Shown in pieces: positions 3,461 to 18,567 of a stretch of 21,222 nucleotides of DNA. The position numbers and the translations under genes are program-made. Under the pieces are notes generated by a model. The model was not told where the DNA came from. It searched no databases and worked only from the letters and a program-made list of their open reading frames with translations. This DNA comes from a virus: IMG/VR virus record IMGVR_UViG_3300037493_004352, positions 1 to 21,222 of that record; one strand, given 5' to 3'. The stretch's first letter is position 1. Each line of letters opens with the position of its first letter.

Positions 3461-3915
3461 TGAAAAGGATTAATGAAATTTTAGAGAGCTCTACTTTGAA
3501 GCCAGCATGTAAATATCAATACCAGGAGCCTTTTGTGAATACGCATGACATCCAGACAGCTAGAATTGTAAATAAATTATTCGCCACATTCCAAGGGATA
3601 TTTCCTGCTTTTAGACAAGCATGGCCAACGGAGGGTGAATTTGAGCGGGCTAAAAAAGAGTGGATAAAAGCGTTCCAACAAATTGGTTTAAGCGATGTCG
3701 ACCTTATTAAAAAAGGGGTAGAAAAATACAGGCTACTTGAATCGCCTTTTGTTCCATCTCCTGGGCAATTTATTGCGTTATGCAAAAAGATAGAAATAAA
3801 ACCACAATCAGACACACGAAATCTAGAAGATTTTGCATTGCCAGCACCTGAAAGAACACGTAGATTAGAGTACGGAAGAGAACAACTTCAAATGCTTAAG
3901 GATATGCTAAGGTAA
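3460..3915 (+). CDS. P: Replication protein P-like helicase loader
   Basis: A 151-residue protein matching the lambda replication protein P pattern. NKLFATFQGIFPAF is followed by a KKEWIKAF segment and the family hallmark PFVPSPGQF at residues 96-104 (lambda P has PFLPSPGQF). P proteins carry the host DnaB helicase to the O-bound origin. I start it at 3460, where TAATG couples it to the stop of the initiator gene; an in-frame ATG at 3427 lies inside that gene and lacks a Shine-Dalgarno. It is shorter than lambda P (233 residues), mainly at the C-terminus. The pairing with an O-like gene and iterons supports the call. Interaction with DnaB is established for lambda P and inferred here. Confidence 0.85.
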   Translation: MKRINEILESSTLKPACKYQYQEPFVNTHDIQTARIVNKLFATFQGIFPAFRQAWPTEGEFERAKKEWIKAFQQIGLSDVDLIKKGVEKYRLLESPFVPSPGQFIALCKKIEIKPQSDTRNLEDFALPAPERTRRLEYGREQLQMLKDMLR

Positions 3916-3917
3916 TT

Positions 3918-4175
3918 ATGACTATTAGCTGGGTAAACATGACATTCAAACCCTACTGCGATAGAAGCGGCATAGAATTATTGCCCGATGATTTACGTTT
4001 TATTGTCAAATATCTAAGCTACATCCCAGCGGACAGGCGCAAATTTGTCATGAAGCAATATTGTGAAGAATGGAAGCAAGGAATGATTGATGAAAAGTCG
4101 CAATTAGCTAAAATGAATAGCGGTAGAAGACGCGCAAATAGCTATCTGAGAGAAGCCGTTGGTGATAAAATGTAG
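3918..4175 (+). CDS. Small early protein after the P-like gene, unknown
   Basis: An 85-residue basic protein. The segment DRRKFVMKQYCEEWKQGM is helical and the C-terminus is Arg-rich (NSGRRRANSYLREAVG), which could bind nucleic acid. AAGGTAA lies upstream of the ATG, 2 nt after the P-like stop, so it is cotranscribed with the replication genes. It ends in TAG, which shows that this phage uses amber as a true stop. No family was recognised; the position after P suggests a replication or late-control accessory. Confidence 0.6.
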   Translation: MTISWVNMTFKPYCDRSGIELLPDDLRFIVKYLSYIPADRRKFVMKQYCEEWKQGMIDEKSQLAKMNSGRRRANSYLREAVGDKM

Positions 4176-4199
4176 GTCTACAAAAACTAAGAGAGCAAA

Positions 4200-4406
4200 A
4201 TGGCAACAGGTACAGTGAAGTGGTTTAATGACCAAAAAGGATTTGGATTTATAACCGATGGCAAAAGTGATTTTTTTGCTCATTTCAGAGCCATTCAGAC
4301 CCCAGGCTTTAAAACTTTAAAAGAAGGCCAGAAAGTTAACTTTGATTCTAACTTACAATCTTCTAAAGGACCCGTAGCTGAAAATATTGTTATATTAGGC
4401 GATTAA
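4200..4406 (+). CDS. Cold-shock domain protein (CspA type)
   Basis: A 68-residue protein with the complete CspA fold signature: [13 protein letters not shown]1 KGFGFI at residues 13-18, RNP2-like DFFAHF at 24-29, then the [15 protein letters not shown] segment typical of bacterial Csps. These proteins bind single-stranded RNA or DNA and act as RNA chaperones or antiterminators. RNP2 has FFAHF where cellular Csps usually have VFVHF or VFVHY; its aromatic face is kept. It lies 24 nt after the preceding gene at the end of the early rightward operon. It was probably acquired from a bacterium; the benefit may be mRNA unfolding or antitermination during infection, which is inference. Confidence 0.93.
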
Positions 4407-4492
4407 AAGCGATTTGAGCCGCGCATAAGCTGCGATTACAGCAAATTGGTATCTTTGTCGCGGTCAAAAGAAAAGCGCCTTAAAACGCAAAT

Positions 4493-4720
4493 TTAGGCCT
4501 TGGTTTCAGCAAGATTATTTATTAGCATCAAAAGCTGTTTATTTATTACTAGTAAATCAGGGTCGGAAAAACGGTATACTTTTCTGTTTCTGGTTAAAAC
4601 GATAGTTGTATGGCCTGAATCTGGTGATGGACGAGGATTTCTGACTGTGATTTCGTAGTCATGAAGCTTGAGTATAGTGCACAGCCATTTCATTTGGTCG
4701 CGTAATTGATTTTTAGCCAT
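4493..4720 (-). CDS. Small protein coupled to csrA, unknown
   Basis: A 75-residue protein starting MAKNQLRDQMKWLC, with a mixed alpha/beta middle (YEITVRNPRP, TTIVLTRNRKVYRF) and a C-terminal helix. No family was recognised. I start it at the ATG at 4720, which overlaps the csrA stop by 8 nt. An in-frame ATG at 4744 has its purine-rich tract only 1 nt away, which disfavours it. It is the last gene of the leftward accessory operon, and no clear terminator was found in the 86 nt to the convergent csp gene. Tight coupling to csrA suggests joint expression. Confidence 0.6.
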   Translation of the reverse strand: MAKNQLRDQMKWLCTILKLHDYEITVRNPRPSPDSGHTTIVLTRNRKVYRFSDPDLLVINKQLLMLINNLAETKA

Positions 4721-4886
4721 TGGATTCCAAAGCAGGCAATCCATGCCTTTCTTTGCGATGAATTTTTATATGACTTGGGGCTTTGACGCTAAATTTTACT
4801 TTGCCATTTTCAAAATCTAAGACTGTGACAATGATGTCATCACCAATTATGATTGATTCATTTTTTCTGCGGGCTAAAGATAACAA
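4713..4886 (-). CDS. csrA: CsrA/RsmA-type translational regulator
   Basis: A 57-residue protein, close to the usual CsrA length of 60-70. It opens MLSLARRKNESIIIGDD (E. coli CsrA: MLILTRRVGETLMIGDE), continues ITVTVLD-like beta strands and VKAPSHIKIHRKE, which matches VNAPKEVAVHREE. The RNA-contact residues of CsrA are kept: Leu4, Arg6, Arg7 and Arg44 in IHRKE. The start is TTG with AGGAG 6 nt upstream. CsrA dimers bind GGA motifs in mRNA leaders and block or stabilise messages. The gene lies in the leftward phage accessory operon and overlaps the next gene by 8 nt. The C-terminal tail (HGLPALESNG) differs from cellular CsrA. It may redirect host translation or control phage late genes; both are inference. 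Confidence 0.9.
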   Translation of the reverse strand: MLSLARRKNESIIIGDDIIVTVLDFENGKVKFSVKAPSHIKIHRKERHGLPALESNG

Positions 4887-4901
4887 ATTAAACTCCTAAA
4901 T

Positions 4902-4938
4902 TATCGGACATTTATAGAAATGCTGTAACCGTCCGATA
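4902..4938 (-). promoter_or_regulatory. Hairpin in csrA leader
   Basis: An 8-bp perfect inverted repeat (TATCGGAC at 4902-4909 and GTCCGATA at 4931-4938) with a 21-nt loop lies just upstream of the csrA Shine-Dalgarno on the leftward mRNA. One GGA is in the stem and another is the Shine-Dalgarno itself (AGGAG). CsrA-type proteins often repress their own message through such sites, so this may be an autoregulatory element. It does not have a terminator U-tract directly after it. Confidence 0.4.
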
Positions 4939-4942
4939 TCTT

Positions 4943-5137
4943 TTACAAAAATGCATTAAGCTTTCTATAAAGCATGTAGGCATTATCTTTTAGAATTTTC
5001 ATTTGTTCAAGCGAGATATTGTTTTGTGTTTGGTGTGTACCTGTTTCGTTTATGAAGGTTATTAGGTGCAATAACGTATCGTGTTTGGTTATTGATGGTT
5101 TGTAGTTTTCGTTCATTAGGTCTAATAGGTCAATCAT
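4943..5137 (-). CDS. Small accessory protein, unknown
   Basis: A 64-residue, mostly helical protein starting MIDLLDLMNENYKP. No motif or membrane segment is visible. The Shine-Dalgarno is weak (AAAAGA), so expression may depend on coupling or be low. It lies between a tiny membrane-protein gene and the csrA leader in the leftward operon. Other small proteins here also begin with MID (MIDYEKL, MIDSYKL, MIDYENK), which may reflect a shared N-terminal design or just similar ribosome loading. Function unknown. Confidence 0.5.
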   Translation of the reverse strand: MIDLLDLMNENYKPSITKHDTLLHLITFINETGTHQTQNNISLEQMKILKDNAYMLYRKLNAFL

Positions 5138-5186
5138 TTTTGTCTTTTGTTAATATGTATTTGCATTAAATAGCCTAATTAGTATG

Positions 5187-5324
5187 TTATGAGAATATTT
5201 GGCCAAGTAAAGCATATAACCCGCCGCAGAAAAAGCAGCCAGAAAGCAAGGTCATTCTTAATTTTGATGCTAATGGGAGCCCTAGTGTTATTGCTATAAA
5301 TATTAATGCTAATTCGTGTGTCAT
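5187..5324 (-). CDS. Tiny membrane protein with two hydrophobic segments
   Basis: A 45-residue protein with two hydrophobic stretches (about residues 5-19 and 24-43) separated by a short basic turn (SKLR). This is the layout of a small two-pass membrane protein. Its ATG overlaps the stop of the upstream gene (ATGA), which supports real translation. Small holin-like or membrane-modulating proteins look like this, but lysis genes usually sit elsewhere in P22-like phages, so I make no functional claim. Confidence 0.5.
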   Translation of the reverse strand: MTHELALIFIAITLGLPLASKLRMTLLSGCFFCGGLYALLGQIFS

Positions 5325-5500
5325 TGTTTTACCTTGATGCAAGTTGCTTTACGGACATCGACTGAGCATGTCATACAATTGGCTAATTCTGTTAGGATTG
5401 CTTTTTTATTTTGTTGGCATAGAGCCCAGGTTTCCATGGGAATGCTGTAGGCTGATGTGCCGCCTTGTAGGTGCATGAATAGGATTAGGGCGTATTTCAC
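5321..5500 (-). CDS. Small secreted cysteine-containing protein
   Basis: A 59-residue protein that starts with GTG (AAGGAAAT Shine-Dalgarno, overlap GTGA with the previous stop). MKYALILFMHLQGGTSAYS resembles a short signal peptide. The mature part holds four cysteines (C28, C42, C45, C54), suggesting disulfides in the periplasm. Small phage proteins of this layout, with a signal peptide, a PME segment and several Cys, occur in early phage operons without known function. A role at the cell envelope is inferred only from the signal-like N-terminus. Confidence 0.5.
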   Translation of the reverse strand: MKYALILFMHLQGGTSAYSIPMETWALCQQNKKAILTELANCMTCSVDVRKATCIKVKQ

Positions 5501-5688
5501 TTTATTTCCTTTAGTTCTTCGGATTGTTGGTTGTATATTGAGTTAAGTAAATCAATAGCATTATTAAGATTTTCTTTTCCGTGCTCCGATATACTTAGTC
5601 CATTCGTCTCTTTTAATGTTTTTAAATTATCAATATAATTATGAACATGAACTATTAAAGAATGAATTTGTTTTTCACTGATTATCAT
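5497..5688 (-). CDS. Small helical accessory protein, unknown
   Basis: A 63-residue protein, charged and predicted all-helical (HSLIVHVHNYIDNLKTLKE, then NLNNAIDLLNSIYNQQSEELKEIK), possibly a coiled-coil hairpin. Its ATG overlaps the stop of the zinc-ribbon frame upstream (ATGA), and its stop overlaps the next GTG. A GGGG tract lies 11 nt upstream of the start. It is part of the leftward accessory operon. No function can be assigned. Confidence 0.5.
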   Translation of the reverse strand: MIISEKQIHSLIVHVHNYIDNLKTLKETNGLSISEHGKENLNNAIDLLNSIYNQQSEELKEIK

Positions 5689-5832
5689 TGCGTTTCATCC
5701 CCTGTTTTTTTGCCGCATTTAGTGCACATCCAAGTCCAGCCGCCAGTGCATTTTCGGTTTTCAATTAAACATTCATTTTTCGGCCAAACGCCTGTCGTTG
5801 TAATAATCGGTTATGCGTTTAATCCATTTCAT
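5685..5832 (-). pseudogene. Zinc-ribbon gene split by a frameshift
   Basis: An ATG at 5832 opens MKWIKRITDYYNDRR and then runs into TGA after 19 codons. In the +1 frame the sequence continues WPKNECLIENRKC, then TWMCTKCGKK, and ends at a TGA that overlaps the next start (ATGA). This second part has four Cys in zinc-ribbon spacing but no start codon before its first Cys pair. Removing one T from the TTT run (plus-strand AAA at 5786-5788) would join both parts into a 48-residue protein. It may be a true mutation, a homopolymer error or programmed frameshifting. Confidence 0.5.
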
Positions 5833-5953
5833 CTTTACGCTTCTCCAATTTCTCTATTTTTTCACTAAGCTCTCGAATTATTCGCCATAGCGTTGGAATT
5901 TCAAATAACATGGATTCAAGCAGGATTTTATGCTTGGCTGTAAATATTTTCAT
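5819..5953 (-). CDS. Tiny helical protein, unknown
   Basis: A 44-residue protein (MKIFTAKHKILLESMLFEI start) whose second half is a charged helix likely to form a coiled coil (RELSEKIEKLEKRKDEMD). A GGAG tract lies 9 nt upstream, and the ATG overlaps the stop of the zinc-module protein (ATGA). The 3' end overlaps the frameshifted zinc-ribbon gene. The overlap chain is the main evidence that it is translated. Function unknown. Confidence 0.5.
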   Translation of the reverse strand: MKIFTAKHKILLESMLFEIPTLWRIIRELSEKIEKLEKRKDEMD

Positions 5954-6834
5954 TTATAGAATTCTCCGCATTTTTTGCATCTTGACGCTGGGAATTCAAG
6001 ACCTTCTGAGCCTGGATTCATGATGTATTTTATATTGTCGCTTTCGTGCTGGCATTCTTCTTTGGCTGGCTTATTACCACAAATTTCGCAATACATACGA
6101 ACGTTTTCAGTTTCGTAGCAAATTACTCCATGCGGACATCTGTGATATGGTGTGGGGGCTAGTTTGCTTACAGATTCAACCGCGGGCTTTAATAAAGCTA
6201 TCGGATATTGATGGCCGCACTTATGACACATATTGATAAAACACATGCCCGACTTATCCAATGTTTTTTGATATTCGTGGTCGCATTGTGGCTTTGGTTT
6301 CGGATTACAATCTATTGACCACTGAAAAGGAATTTCTTGCTTGCAATCTAGGCAAGAATTTGTACCTGACGTATGGCCGGTCATTGAAATTGATTGATTT
6401 AAGTGTTTGCATTCTGGCTTTAGTAATGATTGCCAATAGGTTATTTGTGCCTCTATGAGGGCTTGCTTTGTGGGGTGTAAGTCGGATTCTTGCGCCCAGT
6501 CTTTTCCTGTAGTCATAGAGCCGTCGATAGGCCTGCAATCACTAATTTTATATTCATCGCCTTCATATTTAACTATTTTAGCAACACATATACAATCACA
6601 GTCGACAAGCCATACTTTTTTACCTACTTCGTATTTCGGCTTTGGCTCGGTTAATTCTTCAAGCTTTTTAATTAGGTCGTCTATATTTAAAAATCCATAG
6701 CCGTGCGGCTCATTTAAATTATGAATTGAATATTTATATCCGGTGTCTTTGCTCCATGACACAAGCAAAGCATAATCACCGCTTAATTTTTCAAGTAATA
6801 AGTTCATTAATTTTAGTTTTTCGTAATCAATCAT
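5950..6834 (-). CDS. Four-module CxH/CxxC zinc-type protein
   Basis: A 294-residue protein. Residues 1-135 form an apparently separate domain (KYEVGKKVWLVDCDCICVAKI resembles a small beta-barrel). Four metal-binding modules of the form C-x-H...C-x2-C follow: C142/H144/C161/C164, C184/H186/C203/C206, C233/H235/C249/C252 and C261/H263/C286/C289. The start at 6834 is chosen because AAGGA lies 7 nt upstream; an upstream in-frame TTG is less likely. It is the largest product of the leftward accessory operon and overlaps neighbours at both ends. Four tandem modules suggest nucleic-acid or protein binding, but the target is unknown and no family name can be given. Confidence 0.7.
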   Translation of the reverse strand: MIDYEKLKLMNLLLEKLSGDYALLVSWSKDTGYKYSIHNLNEPHGYGFLNIDDLIKKLEELTEPKPKYEVGKKVWLVDCDCICVAKIVKYEGDEYKISDCRPIDGSMTTGKDWAQESDLHPTKQALIEAQITYWQSLLKPECKHLNQSISMTGHTSGTNSCLDCKQEIPFQWSIDCNPKPKPQCDHEYQKTLDKSGMCFINMCHKCGHQYPIALLKPAVESVSKLAPTPYHRCPHGVICYETENVRMYCEICGNKPAKEECQHESDNIKYIMNPGSEGLEFPASRCKKCGEFYK

Positions 6835-6997
6835 CAAGTTTTCCTTCAATGTAATCTAGCACTCTTGCATAAGCATCATGCATACCTATAGCCATTGCCA
6901 TTCCTGGGGAATTTTGATTATCGCATAGTGTCATAAATCTTTTTTCTGCGTCCATTTCTTCGTATAGCCATTGCTTTAGTTTGTAGGAGTCAATCAT
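6827..6997 (-). CDS. Small helical protein, unknown
   Basis: A 56-residue protein starting MIDSYKLKQWLYEEMDAEKR, with a Met-rich middle (SPGMAMAIGMHDAYARVLDYIEG). It is predicted to be two helices. It starts in a TAATG overlap with the upstream gene and overlaps the zinc-module gene by 8 nt, so all are read from one leftward message. It has no recognisable motif; function unknown. Confidence 0.5.
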   Translation of the reverse strand: MIDSYKLKQWLYEEMDAEKRFMTLCDNQNSPGMAMAIGMHDAYARVLDYIEGKLDD

Positions 6998-7167
6998 TAA
7001 TGCCGCTCCATAAACTCTTTAAGCAAATCAAAAAGCTCGTAATCAGCAATCATCAACCTTCTATCGCCGTAATTTAGGTAAGTATCTAGTAGGTCAAACT
7101 CTATTGATAGCTCTTCATCATTGTCGGCAACAGTTAGCCGAATAGAAGAACCATGTCTAATCTTCAT
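6997..7167 (-). CDS. Small acidic protein, unknown
   Basis: A 56-residue acidic protein: a beta hairpin-like N-terminus (MKIRHGSSIRLTVADND, then ELSIEFDLLDTY) and a C-terminal helix (DYELFDLLKEFMERH). The Shine-Dalgarno GGGAGAA lies upstream inside the preceding gene, and the stop overlaps the next ATG (TAATG). High acidity in such a tiny early-operon protein would suit a mimic or a binder of a host protein, but that is speculation. No family was recognised. Confidence 0.5.
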   Translation of the reverse strand: MKIRHGSSIRLTVADNDEELSIEFDLLDTYLNYGDRRLMIADYELFDLLKEFMERH

Positions 7168-7309
7168 CACATTCTCCCACTATTAAATCATAAATCCATT
7201 CGCAAAAAAGTTCGTTATAATCTGAATGCTTAACTTCCTCTATTTGCTCATATATCGGATTATAAATCGCCATAAGCTCACTTATTGTTTTATTTTCGTA
7301 ATCAATCAT
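7157..7309 (-). CDS. Small acidic protein, unknown
   Basis: A 50-residue strongly acidic protein (MIDYENKTISELMAIYNPIY start, CEWIYDLIVGECDED end). It is predicted helical, with no motif. The ATG is within 1 nt of the stop of the upstream membrane-protein gene, and the 3' end overlaps the next gene by 11 nt. It ends in TAG. It belongs to the leftward accessory operon; function unknown. Confidence 0.45.
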   Translation of the reverse strand: MIDYENKTISELMAIYNPIYEQIEEVKHSDYNELFCEWIYDLIVGECDED

Positions 7310-7447
7310 TTATTTGCACCCCATAAAAACTACTAAGCCGTGAATACCTAAGCACAATAATCCAGTCATAATTCCACCAAGATTAAGTTTATAGCCTATA
7401 GGTGCGCCCAATCCTACGGCGATAATTGTTGGTAACCATTCATGCAT
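7310..7447 (-). CDS. Tiny membrane protein
   Basis: A 45-residue protein with two hydrophobic, glycine-rich stretches (LPTIIAVGLGAPIGY and GGIMTGLLCLGIHGLVVFMG), consistent with a two-pass inner-membrane peptide. GGAG lies 7 nt before the ATG, and TAATG overlap joins it to the upstream gene. Small glycine-rich membrane proteins in phage early operons can affect superinfection or the membrane potential, but nothing in the sequence proves this here. Confidence 0.5.
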   Translation of the reverse strand: MHEWLPTIIAVGLGAPIGYKLNLGGIMTGLLCLGIHGLVVFMGCK

Positions 7448-7659
7448 TAAAACAACTCCTTCTGTATTTTCTTATCTTGATCTAATACCATTTTAGCGAA
7501 TGATACTAGTGATTCCCAGGCAAAATGATGGCTTGCTTGGCTGAAGACCACATTGTCGTCGGAGTTCCAGACTTCTGTCTCTACTTCGCCGTCTTTGCGT
7601 AGTCTTGCGAATATTGTGTGGTCTGAGCCCATTAGGTCGTATAGGGTTAGGTCTTTCAT
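7447..7659 (-). CDS. First gene of the leftward accessory operon, unknown
   Basis: A 70-residue protein starting MKDLTLYDLMGSDHTIFARL. The ATG at 7659 has AAGGA 7 nt upstream; the alternative ATG at 7680 lacks a Shine-Dalgarno. The sequence suggests a small alpha/beta fold with a C-terminal helix (AWESLVSFAKMVLDQDKKIQKE). As the first gene behind a TATAAT promoter overlapped by a repressor operator, it should be the most strongly expressed of the operon. Function unknown. Confidence 0.6.
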   Translation of the reverse strand: MKDLTLYDLMGSDHTIFARLRKDGEVETEVWNSDDNVVFSQASHHFAWESLVSFAKMVLDQDKKIQKELF

Positions 7660-7689
7660 GTTAATTCCTTTTGTTGTCATTTGTTGCCA

Positions 7690-7718
7690 ATTATATATTA
7701 ATCATATGTCACGCGCAA
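7690..7718 (-). promoter_or_regulatory. Promoter of the leftward accessory operon
   Basis: On the minus strand, a consensus -10 TATAAT (7690-7695) lies 17 nt from a -35 TTGCGC (7713-7718). The -35 is weak, but it falls exactly inside the palindromic operator at 7703-7726, as in the cro promoter. Transcription would begin near 7683 and read the whole cluster down to 4493. Confidence 0.55.
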
Positions 7719-7726
7719 CACATATG
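7703..7726 (+). promoter_or_regulatory. Operator copy 2 (shared 21-bp site)
   Basis: A perfect 7-bp inverted repeat CATATGT-N10-ACATATG. Positions 7705-7725 match operator copy 1 (1083-1103) in the pattern TATGTCACGC-N3-ACACATAT. It overlaps the -35 of the leftward promoter and sits between divergent gene sets. The same regulator probably binds both copies; this copy is the better palindrome and could be the stronger site. Confidence 0.6.
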
Positions 7727-7779
7727 TAAAATTTATTGGGTATATTTTGGCATGCATATAGATATTGGGTTAGAATGGC

Positions 7780-7814
7780 TTATGCACAGAGTTTTCCACA
7801 GGAATTGGGGATAA
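7780..7814 (+). promoter_or_regulatory. Cluster of DnaA-box-like sites
   Basis: Three sites lie within 35 bp: TTATGCACA (7780-7788) and TTTTCCACA (7792-7800) both fit the relaxed DnaA consensus TTWTNCACA, and TGGGGATAA (7806-7814) is one mismatch from the reverse box TGTGGATAA. They sit directly before the Shine-Dalgarno and start of the gene at 7817. They could be a second replication element or a DnaA-controlled promoter region. Chance is possible in AT-rich DNA but less likely for three together. Confidence 0.4.
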
Positions 7815-7816
7815 AG

Positions 7817-7933
7817 ATGATCAATCTGTATACAATATGTCCAATTGAATTAGAATCATTGCGAGAATATCTAGAACAAGTTAATATTTGGATCGAACAA
7901 CTTAAGCTTAAATTGGAGATAGACGATGAGTGA
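7817..7933 (+). CDS. Tiny protein at head of rightward unit, unknown
   Basis: A 38-residue helical protein ([20 protein letters not shown] start), probably a single coiled-coil-like helix. The ATG at 7817 is preceded by a GGGGAT Shine-Dalgarno. Longer starts (TTG 7736, ATG 7775) would place the DnaA-like cluster and likely promoter inside the gene, so I prefer the short form. The 3' end overlaps the next gene by 8 nt. Function unknown. Confidence 0.45.
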
Positions 7934-8120
7934 AGACAGACCTGTAGAGAATGAAGCTTACTGTATGCCAAGCGCATATAAAAGCGTTGTTGCTGATATG
8001 AATGCTGGAAGCAAATATCCTTCTTGGAATTCTAGAGCTGACAATCAAACTAAATACCCTCTTGAAGGCATGAAAGGTGCTAAGGTTCGTAAGCAAGAGA
8101 TGGGTGGAAAAGGCTTGTAA
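7926..8120 (+). CDS. Small structural or accessory protein, unknown
   Basis: A 64-residue hydrophilic protein starting [20 protein letters not shown] and ending in a basic [15 protein letters not shown] tail. It looks unstructured at both ends. It overlaps the preceding tiny gene by 8 nt and is followed 7 nt later by the methyltransferase gene, so the three are one transcription unit. I did not recognise the family. Confidence 0.5.
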
Positions 8121-8127
8121 TATATAT

Positions 8128-9375
8128 ATGAATAGGAATTATAAAGACGTTTTGGTCGAGGATTTAAAGGAGTACAAGTTAAATTCTCGGCTGCATAGTG
8201 ATCAACAAATCAAGCAAGTAGTTAACTCTATAAACGAATTTGGCTTTACTAATCCTTTATTAATTGATGAAAACAACGAGATAATTGCAGGTCATTGTAG
8301 GCTTAAAGCTGCTATTAGTTTAGGCATGACAAGCGTTCCTTGCGTTGTTTTAAGTCATTTAACCTCATCACAAAAAAAAGCTTATGTTATTGCTGACAAT
8401 AAATTGGCTTTAAATGCTGATTGGGATATATCTATATTGCAAGCTGAGTTTGAATCATTAAAGTTTGATGATTTTAATCTTGAGCTGACAGGATTTAGTC
8501 TTGAGGAATTGATTGATATCTTTCCTCATGAAGAGCCAGAAGTGTTTTGTGATGAAGATGATTGTCCTGATGTACCTATTGAGCCCACCTCAAAACTTGG
8601 TGATGTTTGGGTGCTTGGTGAGCATCGGTTGATGTGTGGTGACAGTACATCGATTGATGTTATTGATAAGTTAATGCAAGGCAATAAAGCTGATATGGTA
8701 TTTACCGACCCTCCTTATAACACAGGGATGACCGCTGAATCACAAAAGGGTTCGGGAGGCCTGTGGAAAGGAACAAAAGGATCCAAGTCAGGTAGGCTAT
8801 CAAATATGTTTGACGATGCTTACACAGATGATGAATGGCAAGAATTTATGTCATTGTTTACTACTAATTATTATATGTTATTGAAGCCTGATTCCGTTGC
8901 TTATATATGCCTTGATTGGCGTAGAAATCATGAGTTAATACCTCATATTGATAAAGCAGGGTTTAAGCGATCTAACTTAATTGTTTGGGACAAGATGGTT
9001 CATGGTCTTGGGTCGGATTATAAATATTGCCATGAATTTATTAACGTATGTAAGAAGGGAAAGCCCACATTGCATACCAATCAAGGTGGCGAAAAAGAAT
9101 ATTATGACATTTGGCATATACAAAGAAAAATGGGAACGGATAAAGACCACGCAACAAAGAAGCCTATAGAGTTAGTTGAAAGAGCCATTAATCACTCAAC
9201 AATTTACGATGACCTGGTTGTTGATTTGTTTGGTGGATCTGGATCTACTTTAATAGCATGTGAAAAACTAAAGCGTAAATGCTTTATGATGGAGCTTGAC
9301 CCAAAATATTGTGATGTCATAATTAAACGATGGGAAAACTATACTAATAAAATAGCCACATTGGAGGGTGCATGA
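8128..9375 (+). CDS. ParB-domain/DNA methyltransferase fusion
   Basis: A 415-residue protein. Residues 7-100 form a ParB/Srx-like nuclease domain (ending of its core: EIIAGHCRLKAA, residues 51-62). A class-beta DNA methyltransferase domain follows: motif IV DPPY at 194-197 comes before the SAM-binding motif I DLFGGSGST at 366-374, the order of beta-class N6-adenine or N4-cytosine enzymes. DPPY favours adenine. This fusion is widespread in phages, where it modifies DNA, perhaps against host restriction. I start it at the ATG 8128, 7 nt after the previous stop; a GTG at 8077 lies inside that gene. The Shine-Dalgarno is weak. The 3' end overlaps the next gene (ATGA). No cognate restriction gene is nearby, so it is probably solitary. 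Confidence 0.92.
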   Translation: MNRNYKDVLVEDLKEYKLNSRLHSDQQIKQVVNSINEFGFTNPLLIDENNEIIAGHCRLKAAISLGMTSVPCVVLSHLTSSQKKAYVIADNKLALNADWDISILQAEFESLKFDDFNLELTGFSLEELIDIFPHEEPEVFCDEDDCPDVPIEPTSKLGDVWVLGEHRLMCGDSTSIDVIDKLMQGNKADMVFTDPPYNTGMTAESQKGSGGLWKGTKGSKSGRLSNMFDDAYTDDEWQEFMSLFTTNYYMLLKPDSVAYICLDWRRNHELIPHIDKAGFKRSNLIVWDKMVHGLGSDYKYCHEFINVCKKGKPTLHTNQGGEKEYYDIWHIQRKMGTDKDHATKKPIELVERAINHSTIYDDLVVDLFGGSGSTLIACEKLKRKCFMMELDPKYCDVIIKRWENYTNKIATLEGA

Positions 9376-10495: not shown

Positions 10496-10725
10496 AAGAT
10501 AAGCTAGGCAGACAAATAATTAAAACAGGCCCTGAAGAAAACTATACTGCACCAACACAAAAAGAAGCCGAATTTAATCTACGTCAACACTTGCTAATGA
10601 TGCTAGAAGCTATGCAATACAAAGGGCCTACAAGATTTATGCCTAATAGCACATTGCGTGATTTAGTAGAGCACGAGAAGATACAGTTCTTACGTAAATT
10701 ACAGGCTAATGATGCTGACAAATGA
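10492..10725 (+). CDS. Small protein preceding TerL, unknown
   Basis: A 77-residue protein with a GTG start (AAGGTG upstream; overlap GTGA with the prior stop). It begins MKDKLGRQIIKTGPEENY and is helical toward the end (LRDLVEHEKIQFLRKLQAND). It overlaps the TerL start by 17 nt. No family was recognised; the location suggests a packaging accessory. Confidence 0.5.
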   Translation: MKDKLGRQIIKTGPEENYTAPTQKEAEFNLRQHLLMMLEAMQYKGPTRFMPNSTLRDLVEHEKIQFLRKLQANDADK

Positions 10726-13402
10726 TGGGCAACGAGCACTCCTAGAGTCAAGCCTAATGCGCCTAAAAGAGTTCCAATACTTCGCTGAAACATTCTTTAA
10801 GATTCGTACTAAGAACGGTTCTGTAATCCCTTTTGAGCTTAACAGAGCGCAGCTATATATCCATGACAGGCTAGAAGCTCAGCTAAAAGAAACTGGCAAG
10901 GTTCGGGCAATATGTCTAAAAGGAAGGCAGCAAGGCGTGTCTACTTTGATACAAGCGCGCTACTTTCATAAGACTGTTACTAATCGGGGAATGAAGACAT
11001 TTATTCTTACGCACGAAACAGCGGCAACTAAAAACTTATTTGATATGACGCGCAGATACTATGAGTATTTGCCCGCAGGCTTAATTCCTAAAGCTAATCG
11101 TGACAGCCAGAAAGAACTTAAGTTTGAATCCATTGACTCTGGATACGCTATTGGAACTGCGGGCGCAAAAGGCACTGGCCGCAGTCAAACAGTACAGTTG
11201 TTGCATGGATGTCTTGGGGCTGGAACGCGAATCTACGATCCAACAACGGGCGGATTGAAATTAATAGAGGACTTTATTGTTGGCGATCGAGTTCAAACTC
11301 ATACTGGTGCAATAGCAAATATATCTTATATATCATCCCAAAAAAAAGAATGCCTTTCAGTTGTTTTTAGGGGTTTAACAGCGTTTCCTTTAATCGCCAC
11401 CCCTGAACATAGGTTTTGGACTAAGCAGGGCTGGAAAGAGCTAAGGCATTTAAATATTGGTGACTCTATTGGTTATCCGGTGGGAACCATTCATAATGTT
11501 TTAACAACTGAATTGTTACCAAAAGCCACCGTTCGTGCTCATGGAGGCGGCAGGCAATTTTTATGCCCAGATGAAATAAATTGTAATTATGAATTTGGAA
11601 GGCTGCTTGGCCTATATCTTGCTGACGGCCATATTGCGCTTCAATATAAATCCCCGCATTACCCGTCAAGATTGGAGTTTGCGGTTCATAGAAAAGAAGT
11701 AAATAGAACGATCGAATGGCTGCTTCCTTTTAGCAGCTATTATTCAAGCATGAAAGTTAATCATCGAGAAGACAGCCTTACCTCTATTATTACAATATAT
11801 GGAAATAGATTTATTAGGCTTATAAATCGCATGTGCGGTCGAACTAAAGAAAAAAAATTCCCATTTGATTGGAGCTTGAAAGGCCGTGAGTTTTGCCTTG
11901 GTTTATTGCATGGTTATTTGGCCGGTGATGGCAGTTCATACGCAGAAGATAGAAGGATTCGCGCAACATCTATTTGCTCGTCGCTAACAATTACTTTAAG
12001 AGACATTTGTGCTTCATTAGGATTTGGGTGGGCCGGTATAGAACACAAAAAATCAGCAGTCAGGCATGGAAGAAATGAAAAAGAAGCTTACATTTTCAGT
12101 CTATGCGGAGAAGGTGTAAATGATATTGCGCGCTCATTAGGGAAGCCTGCACCACCTATATTACGAATCAAAACAAAATCAACCAAGAACAACGCAGCCA
12201 ATACTACTGAAATAAGCGAAGGATATGCCTGGGTTAGAATTAAAGAAATGGAAGACGTTGGAGAAAAGGTTGTTTATGACTTTGAAGTAAACCATGACGA
12301 TCATTCATATTGCACGATTCATGGCGCAACACATAACAGCGAATGCGCCTTTTGGCCCAACGCTGCTGAACATGCCCAAGGTTTAATGCAGGCAGTAGGC
12401 GACCAAGACGGCACCGAAATCATATTAGAGTCCACGGCCAATGGCATTGGCAATTATTTTCATTCTGTATGGGTTGCGGCTGAGCAAGGCAAATCTGATT
12501 TTCAAGCTATTTTTGTTCCTTGGTACTGGCAGCCAGAGTATAGAGCGTTTCACAATCAATCGCATGATGAAATATCGCTAACCGAAGAAGAGCAGCGATT
12601 GATGGATGCTTATGGCTCCGATGGCATGACGCGTGAACATATTTACTGGCGGCGATTTAAGATAGGTCAGTTTAGCAATGATCATGACGTTGGCGTTAGA
12701 TTGTTCCAGCAGGAATATCCGTGTTGCGCTAGTGAGTCGTTCCTCAACCCAATTGACGATACATTTATACCATCAGTCCATGTGTCTAAAGCACGCAAAG
12801 TTAAAATTGATATAGCAAGAACCACTCCGTTATACATAGGTGTTGACCCAGCCATTGGTGACAACGATAGATGCGCTATCATTAAACGCAAAGGGCGAGT
12901 AGCATATGACCTAGAGTTCTTACGTAATCACAATACTATGGAGCTTGCAGGTAGGTTAAAGACAATGATTGATAAAGAGAAGCCGGCTAAAGTGTTTATA
13001 GACTGCATTGGAATTGGTGCTGGAGTTGTTGATAGACTACAGGAGATGGGCTATGAATGTGTCGTGGGTATTAATGTTGCTAGGACTGCTAACAATAAAG
13101 AGCGCTTTGGAAATCTTCGCGCTGAGCTATGGTCCGAAATGCGCGACTGGCTTATGGGAGAAATCCCTGTCCAAATACCTGATAGCGATGAACTTCATAC
13201 AGATTTGTGTGGTTTGGGTTATAAGCATCGTTCTAATGGGCAATTATTAATAGAGTCTAAGGATGATTTAAGAAAGCGTGGGATGCCATCGCCAGATGCT
13301 GCAGATGCACTTTCGATGACCTTTGCATTCGGTATGTATGCAGGAGAATCTAACTTTGCACCTAATTTTATGCCCGATCAACACCGAGGGATGTTTACAT
13401 AA
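10709..13402 (+). CDS. terL: Large terminase subunit with intein
   Basis: An 897-codon gene; removal of the 376-residue intein leaves a 521-residue TerL, a normal size. The ATPase domain shows a Walker A-like KGRQQGVST (residues 71-79) and, after splicing, LLHG joined to SECAFWPNA, the Walker B region with its catalytic Glu. The nuclease domain (RNase H fold) has D713 in YIGVDPAIGD, D765 in VFIDCIG and D863/D866 in PDAADAL, the metal-binding acids of phage headful nucleases. TerL pumps DNA through the portal and cuts it. The start at 10709 overlaps the previous gene by 17 nt; ATGATG leaves one alternative start. Without splicing the ATPase core would be broken, so splicing should be essential for packaging. 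Confidence 0.95.
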   Translation: MMLTNDGQRALLESSLMRLKEFQYFAETFFKIRTKNGSVIPFELNRAQLYIHDRLEAQLKETGKVRAICLKGRQQGVSTLIQARYFHKTVTNRGMKTFILTHETAATKNLFDMTRRYYEYLPAGLIPKANRDSQKELKFESIDSGYAIGTAGAKGTGRSQTVQLLHGCLGAGTRIYDPTTGGLKLIEDFIVGDRVQTHTGAIANISYISSQKKECLSVVFRGLTAFPLIATPEHRFWTKQGWKELRHLNIGDSIGYPVGTIHNVLTTELLPKATVRAHGGGRQFLCPDEINCNYEFGRLLGLYLADGHIALQYKSPHYPSRLEFAVHRKEVNRTIEWLLPFSSYYSSMKVNHREDSLTSIITIYGNRFIRLINRMCGRTKEKKFPFDWSLKGREFCLGLLHGYLAGDGSSYAEDRRIRATSICSSLTITLRDICASLGFGWAGIEHKKSAVRHGRNEKEAYIFSLCGEGVNDIARSLGKPAPPILRIKTKSTKNNAANTTEISEGYAWVRIKEMEDVGEKVVYDFEVNHDDHSYCTIHGATHNSECAFWPNAAEHAQGLMQAVGDQDGTEIILESTANGIGNYFHSVWVAAEQGKSDFQAIFVPWYWQPEYRAFHNQSHDEISLTEEEQRLMDAYGSDGMTREHIYWRRFKIGQFSNDHDVGVRLFQQEYPCCASESFLNPIDDTFIPSVHVSKARKVKIDIARTTPLYIGVDPAIGDNDRCAIIKRKGRVAYDLEFLRNHNTMELAGRLKTMIDKEKPAKVFIDCIGIGAGVVDRLQEMGYECVVGINVARTANNKERFGNLRAELWSEMRDWLMGEIPVQIPDSDELHTDLCGLGYKHRSNGQLLIESKDDLRKRGMPSPDAADALSMTFAFGMYAGESNFAPNFMPDQHRGMFT
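11210..12337 (+). mobile_element. LAGLIDADG homing-endonuclease intein in TerL
   Basis: An in-frame insert of 376 residues starting with Cys (block A: CLGAGTRIYDPTTGG) and ending ATHN before the extein Ser. Block B is ATPEHRFW with the conserved T-x-x-H, and block F is VYDFEVNHDDHSY. The splicing residues Cys1, the TPEH His, the C-terminal His-Asn and Ser+1 are all present, so it should be active. The middle holds two LAGLIDADG motifs, LLGLYLADGH (Asp139 of the intein) and LLHGYLAGDGSS (Asp240), typical of a homing endonuclease. It interrupts the Walker B motif, a favoured conserved insertion site. Both catalytic Asp residues are intact, so homing may still work. Confidence 0.93.
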
Positions 13403-13500: not shown

Positions 13501-15558
13501 ATGGCACGCAAAGACCCTGAATTAGCAACAGAGATTCAACATTGGATTGAAACCTGGGAAAATTATTGGAAAGACAATAAAAACACTTACGATGAATATC
13601 TACAGTTTGTCTTCGGCAACCAATGGCTAGACGAAGAAGCTAGAGTATTTGCGTCATATAAAAAGATACCACTCACATTTAATAAATTAGCCCCAATGGC
13701 TAATCACTTGCTCGGCGAACAAAGACAAAACACTCCAACACTACAATGTGAACCAGATGAGTCTGTTCCCGAGCAAACTGCTGAGGTACGCACAGCTTTA
13801 GTTAAAGATATCACCCTTAACTCTGATACCAATGTGGTATTTCAAACAGCATTTCAATCTGCTATTACTGGCGGATTTGGGGCGTTTACTGTAGATACTG
13901 AGTATGAAAATGACTACTCATTTAATCAAGTGATTAGAATTAAGAAAGAATCTATTCCTACACGTTGCTATTGGGATGTGTCGGCAATGAGCCCGTGTAA
14001 AACTGATGGTTCACACTCAGGGTTTCGCACACGTATGTCACGTGATAAATTTAAATCTATTTACGGCAAGAAGATTGAGCAAGATATACCGCCATCTAAC
14101 ATTGAACAAGGCACTGTGTTTAATGATGATGAGTCGGTTACTATAGTTACTCATTACAGGCGCAAGTATCATCAAGAAACTATTTATAGACTATCTAATG
14201 GGCGTGTGTTGGATAGCAAAGAGTTTAAAATGCTTGAGCGCATTATGGTTGGTGATGATGAGATGCTTTTAGATGGTGAAGAGTTAGTAACTATTGAAGA
14301 AAAGAGAGCGGCACCTCGTTATAAAGTTGAAAAGACAATGATGGCTGGTGATTATGTATTGGAGGAGGGAGAGTTTCCTTCTGAGCAATTACCAATTATA
14401 TTTGTTGATCAGAACTCGTTTTACAATAAGCAGGGCTCACAAGTTACTCGGCCATTCTTTAAGGACACTAAGGATGCTCAGCGTTATATTAATTACTTGG
14501 GCACTCAATCAGCATACCTTGTTAAGATTGGAAGGTATGATCAATTTCTCATTGCTGCTGGAAATGCACGCTCAAATGACACAGCGCAAATATGGCGAGA
14601 TCCGTCTAACATTCAAGGAGGTCTAAAGTTTGATGAGGTGCCATCTGGATTTATACCTCAACAACTAAAGCCGCCAGAGTTATCTGTATCACTAACCCAG
14701 CAATATGAACGTGCAGAACGCGACTTACAGTCATGTACTGGTATGTATAATACGATGATGGGAGAGCAAGGCAATGAAACTTCCAAGCTTGCTATTGACG
14801 CTCGGACTAAGCGTGGTAATTATAATACTCACCTACCTTTCGATTCACTCAACCGAGCTATTGCAGTTTGTGGCCAAATCGTCAATGAAATGATACCCAA
14901 AGTTTACGATACCGAGCGCACATTAATGCTAAATATGAAAGAAAAAGGCATGACTCCGGTAGAAGTTAACAAGCCAATGGACGAGTACGGCGGTCAAATG
15001 CAAAATGACATGACTAAAGGCCGATATACCATCCGTTTACAACCAGGACCAAGCTGGGAAGGACAAAAACAAGAAGCATTAAACTCTATGCAACTTATTT
15101 TGCAAGCCAACCCACAGCTTTTTAACTTAATTGCAGACTTATACGTTGAGAACCTGCCACTAATGAACAATTTAGAGCTCAGAAATAGGTTGAAAACGAT
15201 TGTTCCACCTGAAATTATTGAAGCAGGCAAGACTGGTGAGCCGGTTCCACCTAAACCACAAGCTCCAGACCCAATGATTCAAATTAAAATGCAAGAATTG
15301 CAGCTTAAACAGCAACAATTGCAGATGGAGCAACAACGATTACAGATGGATGCGCACGAGAAAGACCAAGATATTCAGATGCGTTGGCAAGAATTGGAAG
15401 CCAAAAAGCAAGAAGCGGCAGCTGAATTACAAGAAATGGAGCTACGCTATTTGGCTGAGACACAACGCACCTCTTCTAACGAACAAATAGCTCATGCTGA
15501 TAACTTAATTAAACTGTTGACAGTTGCGCACAAACAACAAAAACCACCACGAGAGTAA
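13501..15558 (+). CDS. Portal protein (P22 gp1-like)
   Basis: A 685-residue protein of the P22-type portal family (P22 gp1 has 725). The N-terminus WETWENYWKDNKNTYDEYLQF-type helices, the FGNQWL motif and LTFNKLAPMANHLLGEQRQN are family features. From about residue 590 it has a long Gln- and Glu-rich coiled coil (KMQELQLKQQQLQMEQQRLQ), comparable to the helical barrel at the portal's inner end. Twelve copies would form the ring through which TerL moves DNA and to which gp4-like subunits attach. A Shine-Dalgarno (GAGGG) precedes the ATG by 8 nt. It is directly followed by the scaffold gene. The family call rests on size, order and the matching segments; residue-level identity was not computed. 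Confidence 0.9.
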   Translation: MARKDPELATEIQHWIETWENYWKDNKNTYDEYLQFVFGNQWLDEEARVFASYKKIPLTFNKLAPMANHLLGEQRQNTPTLQCEPDESVPEQTAEVRTALVKDITLNSDTNVVFQTAFQSAITGGFGAFTVDTEYENDYSFNQVIRIKKESIPTRCYWDVSAMSPCKTDGSHSGFRTRMSRDKFKSIYGKKIEQDIPPSNIEQGTVFNDDESVTIVTHYRRKYHQETIYRLSNGRVLDSKEFKMLERIMVGDDEMLLDGEELVTIEEKRAAPRYKVEKTMMAGDYVLEEGEFPSEQLPIIFVDQNSFYNKQGSQVTRPFFKDTKDAQRYINYLGTQSAYLVKIGRYDQFLIAAGNARSNDTAQIWRDPSNIQGGLKFDEVPSGFIPQQLKPPELSVSLTQQYERAERDLQSCTGMYNTMMGEQGNETSKLAIDARTKRGNYNTHLPFDSLNRAIAVCGQIVNEMIPKVYDTERTLMLNMKEKGMTPVEVNKPMDEYGGQMQNDMTKGRYTIRLQPGPSWEGQKQEALNSMQLILQANPQLFNLIADLYVENLPLMNNLELRNRLKTIVPPEIIEAGKTGEPVPPKPQAPDPMIQIKMQELQLKQQQLQMEQQRLQMDAHEKDQDIQMRWQELEAKKQEAAAELQEMELRYLAETQRTSSNEQIAHADNLIKLLTVAHKQQKPPRE

Positions 15559-17079: not shown

Positions 17080-17172
17080 TTCGCCTCCTATAGCGTTACT
17101 CCTTGGATTAGACAAATCAGGAGGGCAAGGAAACCCCCCGTTCGTGCTGCAGGCACTAGATTTGATTTTCAT

Positions 17173-17181
17173 ATTATAGCA
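17173..17181 (-). promoter_or_regulatory. Extended -10 promoter of the HNH gene
   Basis: On the minus strand this reads TGCTATAAT, a perfect extended -10 element. Transcription would begin near 17166 and give an 87-nt leader with two small hairpins (GTGC/GCAC and GGGGGG/CCCTCC) before the AGGAGG Shine-Dalgarno at 17084-17089. Confidence 0.5.
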
Positions 17182-17301
17182 TAATTGTAGCAACAGATGT
17201 GTAGCACCATTACTCCATCAGTTACAAGTGGCAAGTATCGTCTTCTGCCGGACAAAAAAGGCGCTCATAGGAGCAATAATTTTGTTTAACAGGAGATCAA
17301 A

Positions 17302-18567
17302 ATGGCGAATTCGTTTGCTACCACAAGCTATATACTTGACGAAGTTTTTATACGGTACATTAATTATCTCGGGTTTGCCAAAGTGGCCAACCGTAACTTA
17401 GAAGCAGATTTCAAAAACTTAAAATACGCAACTGGTCAAACCATTAACTACCGTTTGGAAGAAAGATTCCTAGGTGGATATGGGGCTACTGCAACTGACG
17501 AAGCTGTGGTGCAAGTTGTTCGTCCATTAACCATTGATACTCAGTTCAACTCTTTAGTATCTTTCAATGGCATGGAATTAACATTCGATCGCGCTCGTGA
17601 CCAACCATATCTTGACATGATGTTAAAGCCTCGTGCTAAACGTCTTGCAAATAACGTTGAGTCATTTATTTGTGCGCAAAATTTCCAACCAGCTGTTTAT
17701 CAAACTACTGGTACACCAGGCGTGCCAATTGACTTCCAAACTGTACTTAATACTGATGCTTACATGACAGAATTAGGTATACCAGAAGATGGCAACCGTT
17801 ATTTTGCTAATAGTCCTGCTGTTTCTGCAGCTCTATCTAACGACCTATATACAGTGTTCAACATGACTGTAAATCGTGGCGCGTTGATGGATGGATTCAT
17901 TGGTCACTTAGCAGGCTTTGACTTCTTCAAGACCAACTTCCTTGTTCGTCAAATTGCTGGTGTTGGTCAAGCAGGTGGTTCACCTCCTACTGGATTTAAA
18001 TTAGCTGGTACTATTACCAATGGTCCAATTAGCTCAGGAAGTACTTTTGTATTGACTGGTTTAGTTGCTAGCCAAGCATCTCCATTTTTTCCTGGTGATA
18101 AGCTTCAGTTTGCAGCTTCTGCTGGTGTATACATGGTTAATCCATTAGCATCTGCATCACAAACTGGTGGATATATTCCTTTATCTACTGCAGCGCAATT
18201 TGTTGTTGTGTCTTCTACTGCTTCTGATGGTTCAGGCAATGCTACCGTTACAGTTAGCCCTGCTGTCGTTGTTAGTGGAGCTCGCCAAAACATTAGCGGT
18301 GCAATTCCAAATGGTGCTCAATTGTTATTAGCACAAAGTCATAACGAGTCACTTGCGTTCCACAATCAATCTATTGTGTTCGCGGCTCCTCCAATTACAG
18401 AGTTAAAGGGTGGTGTTGAAGCTGTTACCACTTATTCTGATCTGTATAAGATGGCAATGACCTATACTCTTGGTGCTGATATTCGTAACTATGTTCAGTT
18501 AGATAGACTGGATATTATTGCGGGTGTTTCAATCAACCCAGAGTTCTCGGTTTGCGTAATGAGCTAA
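17302..18567 (+). CDS. Major coat protein (P22 gp5-like)
   Basis: A 421-residue protein, close to P22 gp5 (430). Family-like segments include RPRAKRLANNVE-type helix (here PRAKRLANNVESF, like ARKLANNVE in gp5), GIPEDGNRYFANSP, and GHLAGFDFFKTNFLV before a Gly/Ser/Ala-rich insertion (about residues 220-345) that corresponds to the gp5 I-domain. The HK97-type fold is expected from the family. The Shine-Dalgarno CAGGAG is well placed before the ATG. Codon use shows many GCT, GTT and CGT codons, as expected for a very highly expressed product. It lies after scaffold and the HNH insert, and before the gp4- and gp10-like genes. The I-domain region is the least certain in detail. Confidence 0.92.
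   Translation: MANSFATTSYILDEVFIRYINYLGFAKVANRNLEADFKNLKYATGQTINYRLEERFLGGYGATATDEAVVQVVRPLTIDTQFNSLVSFNGMELTFDRARDQPYLDMMLKPRAKRLANNVESFICAQNFQPAVYQTTGTPGVPIDFQTVLNTDAYMTELGIPEDGNRYFANSPAVSAALSNDLYTVFNMTVNRGALMDGFIGHLAGFDFFKTNFLVRQIAGVGQAGGSPPTGFKLAGTITNGPISSGSTFVLTGLVASQASPFFPGDKLQFAASAGVYMVNPLASASQTGGYIPLSTAAQFVVVSSTASDGSGNATVTVSPAVVVSGARQNISGAIPNGAQLLLAQSHNESLAFHNQSIVFAAPPITELKGGVEAVTTYSDLYKMAMTYTLGADIRNYVQLDRLDIIAGVSINPEFSVCVMS

What the first reader, a model, noticed from the sequence alone, without database searches (positions are those of the whole stretch)
4713..4886. Phage-borne CsrA homologue hidden as a TTG-start, 57-residue gene
The frame encodes MLSLARRKNESIIIGDD ... VKAPSHIKIHRKE, matching CsrA at its RNA-contact residues (Leu4, Arg6, Arg7, Arg44). 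It starts with TTG after a clean AGGAG and is easily missed by length filters. CsrA is a global post-transcriptional regulator; mobile-element copies are known in Legionella. Inside a phage accessory operon it could retarget host translation or time phage genes. The link to a particular host is inference.
Basis: partly seen in the sequence, partly recalled or inferred. Interest (0 to 1): 0.75.

Follow-up and report, generated by a model that had tools for sequence, protein, structure and literature searches.

The report
Phage-carried CsrA regulator with overlapping partner
A bacterial virus from the environment carries its own small version of CsrA, a protein that bacteria use to switch messenger RNAs on and off; such copies are already known in other phages, but here the gene is kept in a group of related phages and often overlaps an undescribed partner gene.

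Summary
Window 4713-4886 (minus) encodes a 57-residue CsrA-family protein (PF02599, E 2.4e-18; fold matches CsrA structures) that must start at TTG, because an in-frame TAG ends 9 nt before it. Nine of ten RNA-contact positions examined are kept or conservatively changed; Ile47 is Arg, and no C-terminal helix is predicted. The element is a P22-like podovirus fragment. Phage csrA is not new: a 2020 survey listed 30 phages, and knock-down of the coliphage PTXU04 copy shrinks plaques. New here: (1) among records over 30 kb brought in by the terminase, csrA was found in 7 of 7 close relatives and 0 of 19 more distant ones; in 14 of 15 csrA+ records it lies antisense to and 2.4-8.5 kb upstream of the terminase gene; (2) it differs far more between relatives than the structural genes do; (3) in 9 of 10 records that hold a 75-residue gene of an undescribed family, csrA lies directly upstream of it, overlapping in 6 of 9; a cold-shock gene faces them. 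One relative inside the clade has the partner but no csrA. Most likely a GGA-binding translational regulator of lytic growth; targets and host are unknown.

The parts
4713..4886 (-). csrA homologue, 57 aa, TTG start
   Evidence: PF02599 E 2.4e-18; phmmer to PDB CsrA chains; AF2 model and Foldseek; TTG forced by in-frame TAG at 4896-4898
4893..4897 (-). AGGAG Shine-Dalgarno sequence of csrA
   Evidence: sequence
4902..4938 (-). 9-bp hairpin just upstream of the Shine-Dalgarno; a GGA lies in its 5' arm (possible autoregulation site, weak)
   Evidence: fold; the whole 111-nt stretch is no more stable than shuffles (z -0.32)
4493..4720 (-). partner ORF, 75 aa (likely ATG at 4720, 8-nt overlap with csrA); alpha-beta-beta-beta-alpha model, family with K-x-[YW]-[RH]-[FL]-[SC]-D-P-D motif
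   Evidence: homologues directly downstream of csrA in 9 of 10 partner-bearing records, window included; AF2 pLDDT 85.7; no Pfam match at E 10, best PHROG E 0.12
4475..4488 (-). terminator-like hairpin with T tract, just past the partner stop codon
   Evidence: 4 such sites found in 3900-8100, 3.0 expected by shuffling
4200..4406 (+). cold-shock-domain protein, convergent with csrA and partner
   Evidence: PF00313 E 5.3e-23; same place in several relatives, but csp also occurs in relatives without csrA
3918..4175 (+). small gene before csp at the end of the rightward replication genes; conserved in G001
   Evidence: 51% identity to L012
4943..5137 (-). 64-aa gene upstream of csrA; look-alikes lie upstream of csrA in some relatives
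   Evidence: by eye only
13501..15558 (+). P22-like portal protein, identifies the element
   Evidence: PF16510 E 1.1e-103; PHROG 156
17302..18567 (+). P22-like coat protein
   Evidence: PF11651 E 4.9e-18
10709..13402 (+). terminase large subunit with an intein at about residues 167-541; used to place the phage among relatives
   Evidence: homologues without the insert in L012, L015, L017; tree

Best explanation
The gene makes a genuine CsrA/RsmA-type protein that this phage lineage keeps as its own post-transcriptional regulator, most likely for lytic infection. Inferred mechanism: it forms the usual dimer, binds A(N)GGA motifs in mRNA leaders with strands beta1 and beta5, and blocks ribosome access or changes mRNA stability of host transcripts (and perhaps of some phage transcripts, its own leader included). 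Because the C-terminal helix is missing, it may escape antagonist proteins that grip that helix. It is made from the end of a leftward gene set, probably translationally coupled to a 75-residue alpha-beta3-alpha partner that helps or restrains it. Shown: family membership, predicted fold, contact residues, start, gene order, retention among close relatives, overlapping partner. Inferred: dimer, RNA binding, targets, timing, coupling, the partner's role.
For: PF02599 and PDB matches. Of ten positions that passages of PMC6692469 name as important for RNA binding in E. coli or C. jejuni CsrA, L2, L4, R6, R7, A36, R44 and E46 are identical and 40 and 42 conservative. Retention: records over 30 kb, 7 of 7 with csrA at terminase identity 77% or more to L017, 0 of 19 at 58-64%; one change on the terminase tree, 0 of 500 shuffles as low, undecided rows not counted. 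14 of 15 csrA+ records (three near-duplicate pairs among them) have it antisense to and 2.4-8.5 kb upstream of the terminase. Partner directly downstream in 9 of 10 partner-bearing records. Precedent in an isolated phage: knock-down of the csrA homologue of coliphage PTXU04 (a 'Semi-fit' gene) reduces plaque size, and complementation was prevented because its expression was toxic or interfered with infection (PMC11879866, passages); PTXU04's terminase is 36.5% identical to L017's. Plasmid RsmQ shows that a mobile-element CsrA can rewire a host (PMC9928087, passages). PF00589 and PF00239 recombinases not found at E 0.01 in the window or 7 relatives, which fits a lytic role.
Against: Ile47, among the strongest RNA-binding positions of E. 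coli CsrA (PMC6692469), is Arg; the C-terminal helix is not predicted. It falls below NCBIfam's csrA equivalog cut-offs. Three clade sequences have lost R44 and E46 (L052, L064, L065), so classical RNA binding is not kept in all. G024 (L068), inside the clade, has partner and csp but no csrA. csp also stands in 13 csrA-negative records of the terminase set, so it is not tied to csrA. No target could be named: GGA in phage leaders is not enriched, and a hint of depletion is not GGA-specific.
Confidence: 0.6

Rival explanations
1. Dominant-negative or decoy: the phage CsrA no longer binds RNA well (I47R, no helix) and instead forms mixed dimers with host CsrA, or titrates its sRNAs, so switching off host CsrA control.
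For: I47R and missing helix; three clade sequences (L052, L064, L065) lost R44 and E46.
Against: Most contact residues are kept in the window copy. The host is unknown, and in the one candidate host family csrA was found in only 1 of 8 genomes.
Confidence: 0.17
2. It regulates the phage's own genes (timing or autoregulation), not the host.
For: The 12 csrA leaders carry more GGA upstream of the Shine-Dalgarno than 154 other leaders of the same loci (mean 0.67 against 0.32; resampling p 0.028, uncorrected).
Against: Other phage leaders are not enriched for GGA (49 seen, 85 expected by mononucleotide shuffling); the contrast with csrA-negative phages is not GGA-specific, and the window phage shows no depletion.
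Confidence: 0.15
3. A passenger copy recently picked up from a host, without function.
For: Short gene with a weak start codon; csrA is common on mobile elements (PMC7366521, passages). Bacterial genomes were not scanned with this CsrA itself, so a close host version is not excluded.
Against: Found in all 7 close relatives over 30 kb, nearly always at the same place, often with an overlapping partner; in a set of 36 other CsrA rows (18 of them bacterial) the best identity is 42% over 57 columns, and the ten viral relatives are 44-52% over about 46 residues.
Confidence: 0.05

Closest known systems
CsrA homologue gp28 of Escherichia phage PTXU04 (relatives in Pondi and HelliStehle/Bas95)
   Same: CsrA family protein in a podovirus with a distantly related terminase (36.5-37.3% to L017); knock-down shrinks plaques (PMC11879866, passages)
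   Different: In PTXU04 and Bas95 it lies after the lysis genes, with no partner or csp homologue in the stretches fetched; 46-49% identical to the window over 43 residues
RsmM-type CsrA of Pseudomonas phages (F116, H66 and others)
   Same: Phage-borne csrA, 45.7% identity over residues 1-46
   Different: Different phages and host; reported as an RsmM subfamily (PMC7366521, passages)
CsrA gp47 of Burkholderia phage JC1 (Bcep22-like podoviruses)
   Same: CsrA in a podovirus with a P22-like portal; shared by its group in similar places (PMC9144972, passages)
   Different: Numbered between portal (gp45) and capsid (gp48); one peptide seen in virions, not confirmed by the authors; temperate phage
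RsmQ of plasmid pQBR103
   Same: Mobile-element CsrA that acts globally on the host; plasmid copies are more divergent than chromosomal ones (PMC9928087, passages)
   Different: Plasmid, not phage; no such partner gene in the passages seen
T7 Gp1.2 (bound to E. coli dGTPase), for the partner protein only
   Same: Best structural match of the partner model, Z 9.3, rmsd 3.1 over 74 residues
   Different: 8% identity; Foldseek had nothing at E 0.001 or better; dsRNA-binding domains and hibernation factors follow at Z 5-7; a common fold, so no function follows

Membership tests
CsrA/RsmA family (PF02599) | Profile match above the curated cut-off | tested here: met
   66.2 bits against 27, E 2.4e-18
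CsrA/RsmA family (PF02599) | CsrA fold | tested here: met
   Predicted model matches CsrA chains such as 1vpz, 2bti and 5z38 with Foldseek probability 1.00, rmsd 0.7-0.8 A over 37-44 columns
CsrA/RsmA family (PF02599) | RNA-contact residues of beta1 and beta5 (L2, L4, R6, R7, A36, V40, V42, R44, E46, I47) | tested here: inconclusive
   9 of 10 identical or conservative; I47 is R; positions taken from PMC6692469 passages
CsrA/RsmA family (PF02599) | C-terminal alpha helix after R44 | tested here: not met
   No helix in the model, mean pLDDT of the last block 47; not needed for the Pfam match, which ends at 46
CsrA/RsmA family (PF02599) | Homodimer that binds A(N)GGA hairpins | not testable with these tools
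   Only a monomer was modelled; binding needs the bench
Chromosomal CsrA equivalog (NCBIfam NF002469 / TIGR00202) | Score above the equivalog cut-off | tested here: not met
   62.2 against 73 and 59.9 against 70.1 bits
P22-like podovirus | P22-type portal and coat proteins | tested here: met
   PF16510 E 1.1e-103, PF11651 E 4.9e-18
Integrating temperate phage | Tyrosine or serine integrase | tested here: inconclusive
   PF00589 and PF00239 not found at E 0.01 in the window or 7 relatives of 34-39 kb; records may be incomplete and other integrases were not sought

The most novel reading that the evidence does not exclude
P22-like podoviruses carry a two-protein RNA-control system: a fast-evolving, helix-less CsrA, translationally coupled to an undescribed alpha-beta3-alpha partner that binds it (a phage counterpart in function to FliW or CesT) or shares its RNA, set beside a cold-shock gene. 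It would take over host post-transcriptional control during lytic growth, also in hosts that have no CsrA of their own.
Probability: 0.2. Interest if true: 0.72.

Novelty: new variant of a known kind. Interest (0 to 1): 0.48.

Why it matters
Phage csrA genes have been listed with almost no function attached; the authors of the PTXU04 knock-down (2025) say that the role had not been tested before (PMC11879866, passages). This locus says that in one podovirus clade csrA is close to a core gene, changes fast while its place is kept, lacks the helix that the antagonist CesT needs to bind CsrA, and is tied to an unannotated partner. That turns a stray accessory gene into a testable two-protein system. 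As a phage CsrA alone it is ordinary.

Tried and rejected
Legionella host: nothing found ties the window to Legionella; the best 25 of 92 portal matches in the phage collection are only 26-28% identical. Host by genome scan with the terminase profile: 28 loci; only L022 (80%, a 13-kb contig binned in an Alphaproteobacteria MAG) is close, the rest are 51% or less (the scan looks for two short peptide patterns, so it is not exhaustive). The contig may be mis-binned. In that MAG's family csrA was found in 1 of 8 genomes, there beside flagellar-looking genes (by eye); in its order in 28 of 42, 27 over the cut-off; no other of the 8 genomes has the terminase. Genome completeness is not known. Host left open.

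Recent transfer from a known host, or a single-origin CsrA tree: the CsrA tree (37 rows) is unresolved; one clade for the 12 phage rows has p-AU 0.047 with long branches (window end branch 3.56), so one origin with fast change and repeated replacement cannot be told apart.

Self-targeting by GGA enrichment: not found. Leaders upstream of the Shine-Dalgarno held 49 GGA against 85 by mononucleotide shuffling in 12 csrA+ loci and 132 against 147 in 19 csrA- loci; per phage p 0.016, but AGG and GAG fall too, GGA is only fourth of 64 triplets by difference, and the window does not show it (1.17 of expectation). Gene starts were guessed by a simple rule and the phages are related, so no claim is made.

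Regulatory hairpin upstream of csrA: present in the fold, the stretch is not more stable than shuffles. Promoter-like sites: 16 found, 16.6 expected. Rfam: no match at gathering scores.

A csrA-csp tie: csp stands beside csrA in 8 of 15 csrA+ records, but 13 csrA-negative records of the same set also hold a csp, so I do not claim a tie.

L019, found with the partner as query, is a chance hit in a G+C-rich phage with an unrelated 276-aa frame; dropped.

Partner in isolated phages: no match for the window's or L068's copy; in plasmids: no match for L068's copy (E up to 0.1). Partner profile against PDB sequences: best E 0.045, a designed protein. Foldseek for the partner: nothing at E 0.001.

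Full report
What is there. The window is a 21.2-kb virus record of a P22-like podovirus: portal PF16510 (E 1.1e-103), coat PF11651 (E 4.9e-18), an N6/N4 DNA methylase with a ParB domain, a P-like helicase loader (PHROG 109) and a terminase large subunit with an intein. On the minus strand, 4713-4886 encodes MLSLARRKNESIIIGDD...IHRKERHGLPALESNG. The TTG start is forced: an in-frame TAG overlaps the AGGAG, and the only other usual start codons of the frame are codons 50 and 53. Pfam, PHROGs, PDB sequence and PDB fold comparisons all say CsrA.

How good a CsrA is it? Of ten positions that passages of PMC6692469 name as important for RNA binding, the window protein keeps L2, L4, R6, R7, A36, R44 and E46, has Ile at 40 and 42, and has Arg at 47 in place of Ile. 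Residues after 46 do not match the Pfam profile, and the model shows no C-terminal helix (mean pLDDT 47 for the last block). Passages of PMC5864733 say that CsrA cut after R44 no longer binds the antagonist CesT; loss of the helix could free the phage protein from such control. That is inference. NCBIfam's equivalog cut-offs are not reached, so it belongs to the family but is not shown to be an equivalent of chromosomal CsrA.

Relatives. A terminase profile (A1: L017, L012, L015, L016) brought in 80 viral loci, the best 80 of 287. PF02599 searched in their whole records at E 0.01 finds csrA in 14 of 50 and 0 of 30. Among records over 30 kb, csrA was found in 7 of 7 with terminase identity 77% or more to L017 (G001, G006, G009, G011, G014, G017, G021) and in 0 of 19 at 58-64%; none lies between (identities and lengths). 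Completeness of these records is not known. A further record, G154 (31.9 kb, terminase 75-84% to the window), has csrA too, but was found through the partner gene and is not in the count. On a terminase tree of 46 rows (15 with csrA, 19 over 30 kb without, 12 undecided; the other 35 of 81 rows, short records of undecided state under 65% identity, were left out before the tree) the two states are parted by one branch with support 100 (SH-aLRT only, quick method), one change, 0 of 500 shuffles as low. L098 had an extreme branch and odd letters there, probably a wrong frame picked by my script. Against a perfect picture: L068 (G024, 19.2 kb) lies inside the csrA clade and has none in the whole record, and L062 (10.7 kb) has none with 8.4 kb upstream of its terminase held; both were 'undecided' in the tree. 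In 14 of 15 csrA+ records (window included; three near-duplicate pairs) csrA is on the strand opposite the terminase, 2.4-8.5 kb upstream; in L070 it is on the same strand.

Fast change. Between the window and G001 the portal is 87% and the coat 89% identical, the terminase 83%, csp 58%, csrA 43% and the partner 35%. Clade CsrA copies differ in loop length (L017, L056, L057, L058, L070), and three sequences (L052, L064, L065) have lost R44 and E46. The CsrA tree does not resolve their origin.

The partner. Directly downstream of csrA lies a 75-residue ORF whose ATG (4720) overlaps the end of csrA by 8 nt. An HMM scan of the loci held at that point, made without regard to csrA, and two viral scans with only partner alignments as query (the scans need a short motif, so this is no census) gave ten records with this family: the window, G001, G011, G015, G016, G024, G152, G153, G154 and G155. 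In 9 of 10 csrA lies directly upstream; the exception is G024. With inferred start codons, the two genes overlap in six (window 8 nt, G001 14 nt by the sequence, G152 28, G153 52, G155 17 nt; G011 by about 23 nt if a TTG seen in the sequence is the start) and are 3 nt (G154) or 36 nt (G015; G016 alike) apart in three. A csp gene faces them in 9 of 9 records whose contig reaches far enough, overlapping the partner's end or up to 1.3 kb beyond it; G016's contig ends too early. G152, G153 and G155 are far relatives (portal 23-26%, no terminase match in the stretch held), so the arrangement is wider than the close clade. The family has no Pfam match and no convincing PHROG match, and no match among phage records (window and L068 copies) or plasmids (L068 copy). 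Its model is alpha-beta-beta-beta-alpha (pLDDT 85.7, five sequences). The best structural match is T7 Gp1.2 (Z 9.3, 8% identity); dsRNA-binding domains and ribosome hibernation factors are among the rows at Z 5-7; Foldseek's best rows are dsRBDs at E 0.05 or worse. The fold is common; no function follows.

Among the 15 csrA+ records of the terminase set, csp stands next to csrA, convergent, in 8 (window, L052, L054, L056, L058, L060, L065, L081); in 3 the contig ends first (L053, L059, L064); in 4 it is not there (L051, L057, L061; in L070 it lies elsewhere). But csp was also found in 13 csrA-negative records of the set, so it is a wider gene of these phages.

Known work. PMC7366521 (2020, passages) reports csrA in 30 of 2517 phage genomes and notes hosts without chromosomal csrA. 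[quoted passage not shown] Phage JC1's CsrA gave one peptide in virions (PMC9144972, passages). Plasmid RsmQ acts globally on the host (PMC9928087, passages). So the kind is known. The literature searches were made, listings in an open-licence library only; none of the titles or abstracts listed points to this clade or the partner, but a family without a name cannot be searched by words.

Verdict. A real, diverged CsrA in a probably lytic podovirus; known kind, new setting. Interest is moderate: the surprise lies in the retention with fast change and in the overlapping, undescribed partner, not in the presence of csrA.

Noticed in passing
window 10709-13402, residues about 167-541; L013 and L018: Intein in the terminase large subunit. 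L013 and L018 carry an intein-like insert at a different site of the same protein; L012, L015 and L017 have none.
   Followed up: partly
window 16513-17193 (-): Recombination endonuclease VII family gene (PF02945) just before the coat gene; a homologue (35%) sits at the same place in L015. Perhaps a homing endonuclease.
   Followed up: no
L052, L064, L065: CsrA copies without R44 and E46, with IDHPKK and a new basic tail: perhaps a changed binding function.
   Followed up: partly
genomes G094 (uncultured Oceanospirillaceae MAG, L030) and G101 (uncultured Microbulbifer, L038): 15 and 9 PF02599 matches in one genome; several of the weaker ones in G094 are in open frames of about 147-209 aa.
   Followed up: no
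L017:7139-7223: tRNA-Tyr (GTA) gene in the csrA+ relative from IMG genome 2651869534; none in the window.
   Followed up: no
leaders of csrA+ phages: GGA, AGG and GAG are rarer upstream of the Shine-Dalgarno than in csrA- relatives; weak and not specific.
   Followed up: partly
window 8077-9375 (+): A ParB N-terminal domain and an N6/N4 DNA methylase in one protein.
   Followed up: no
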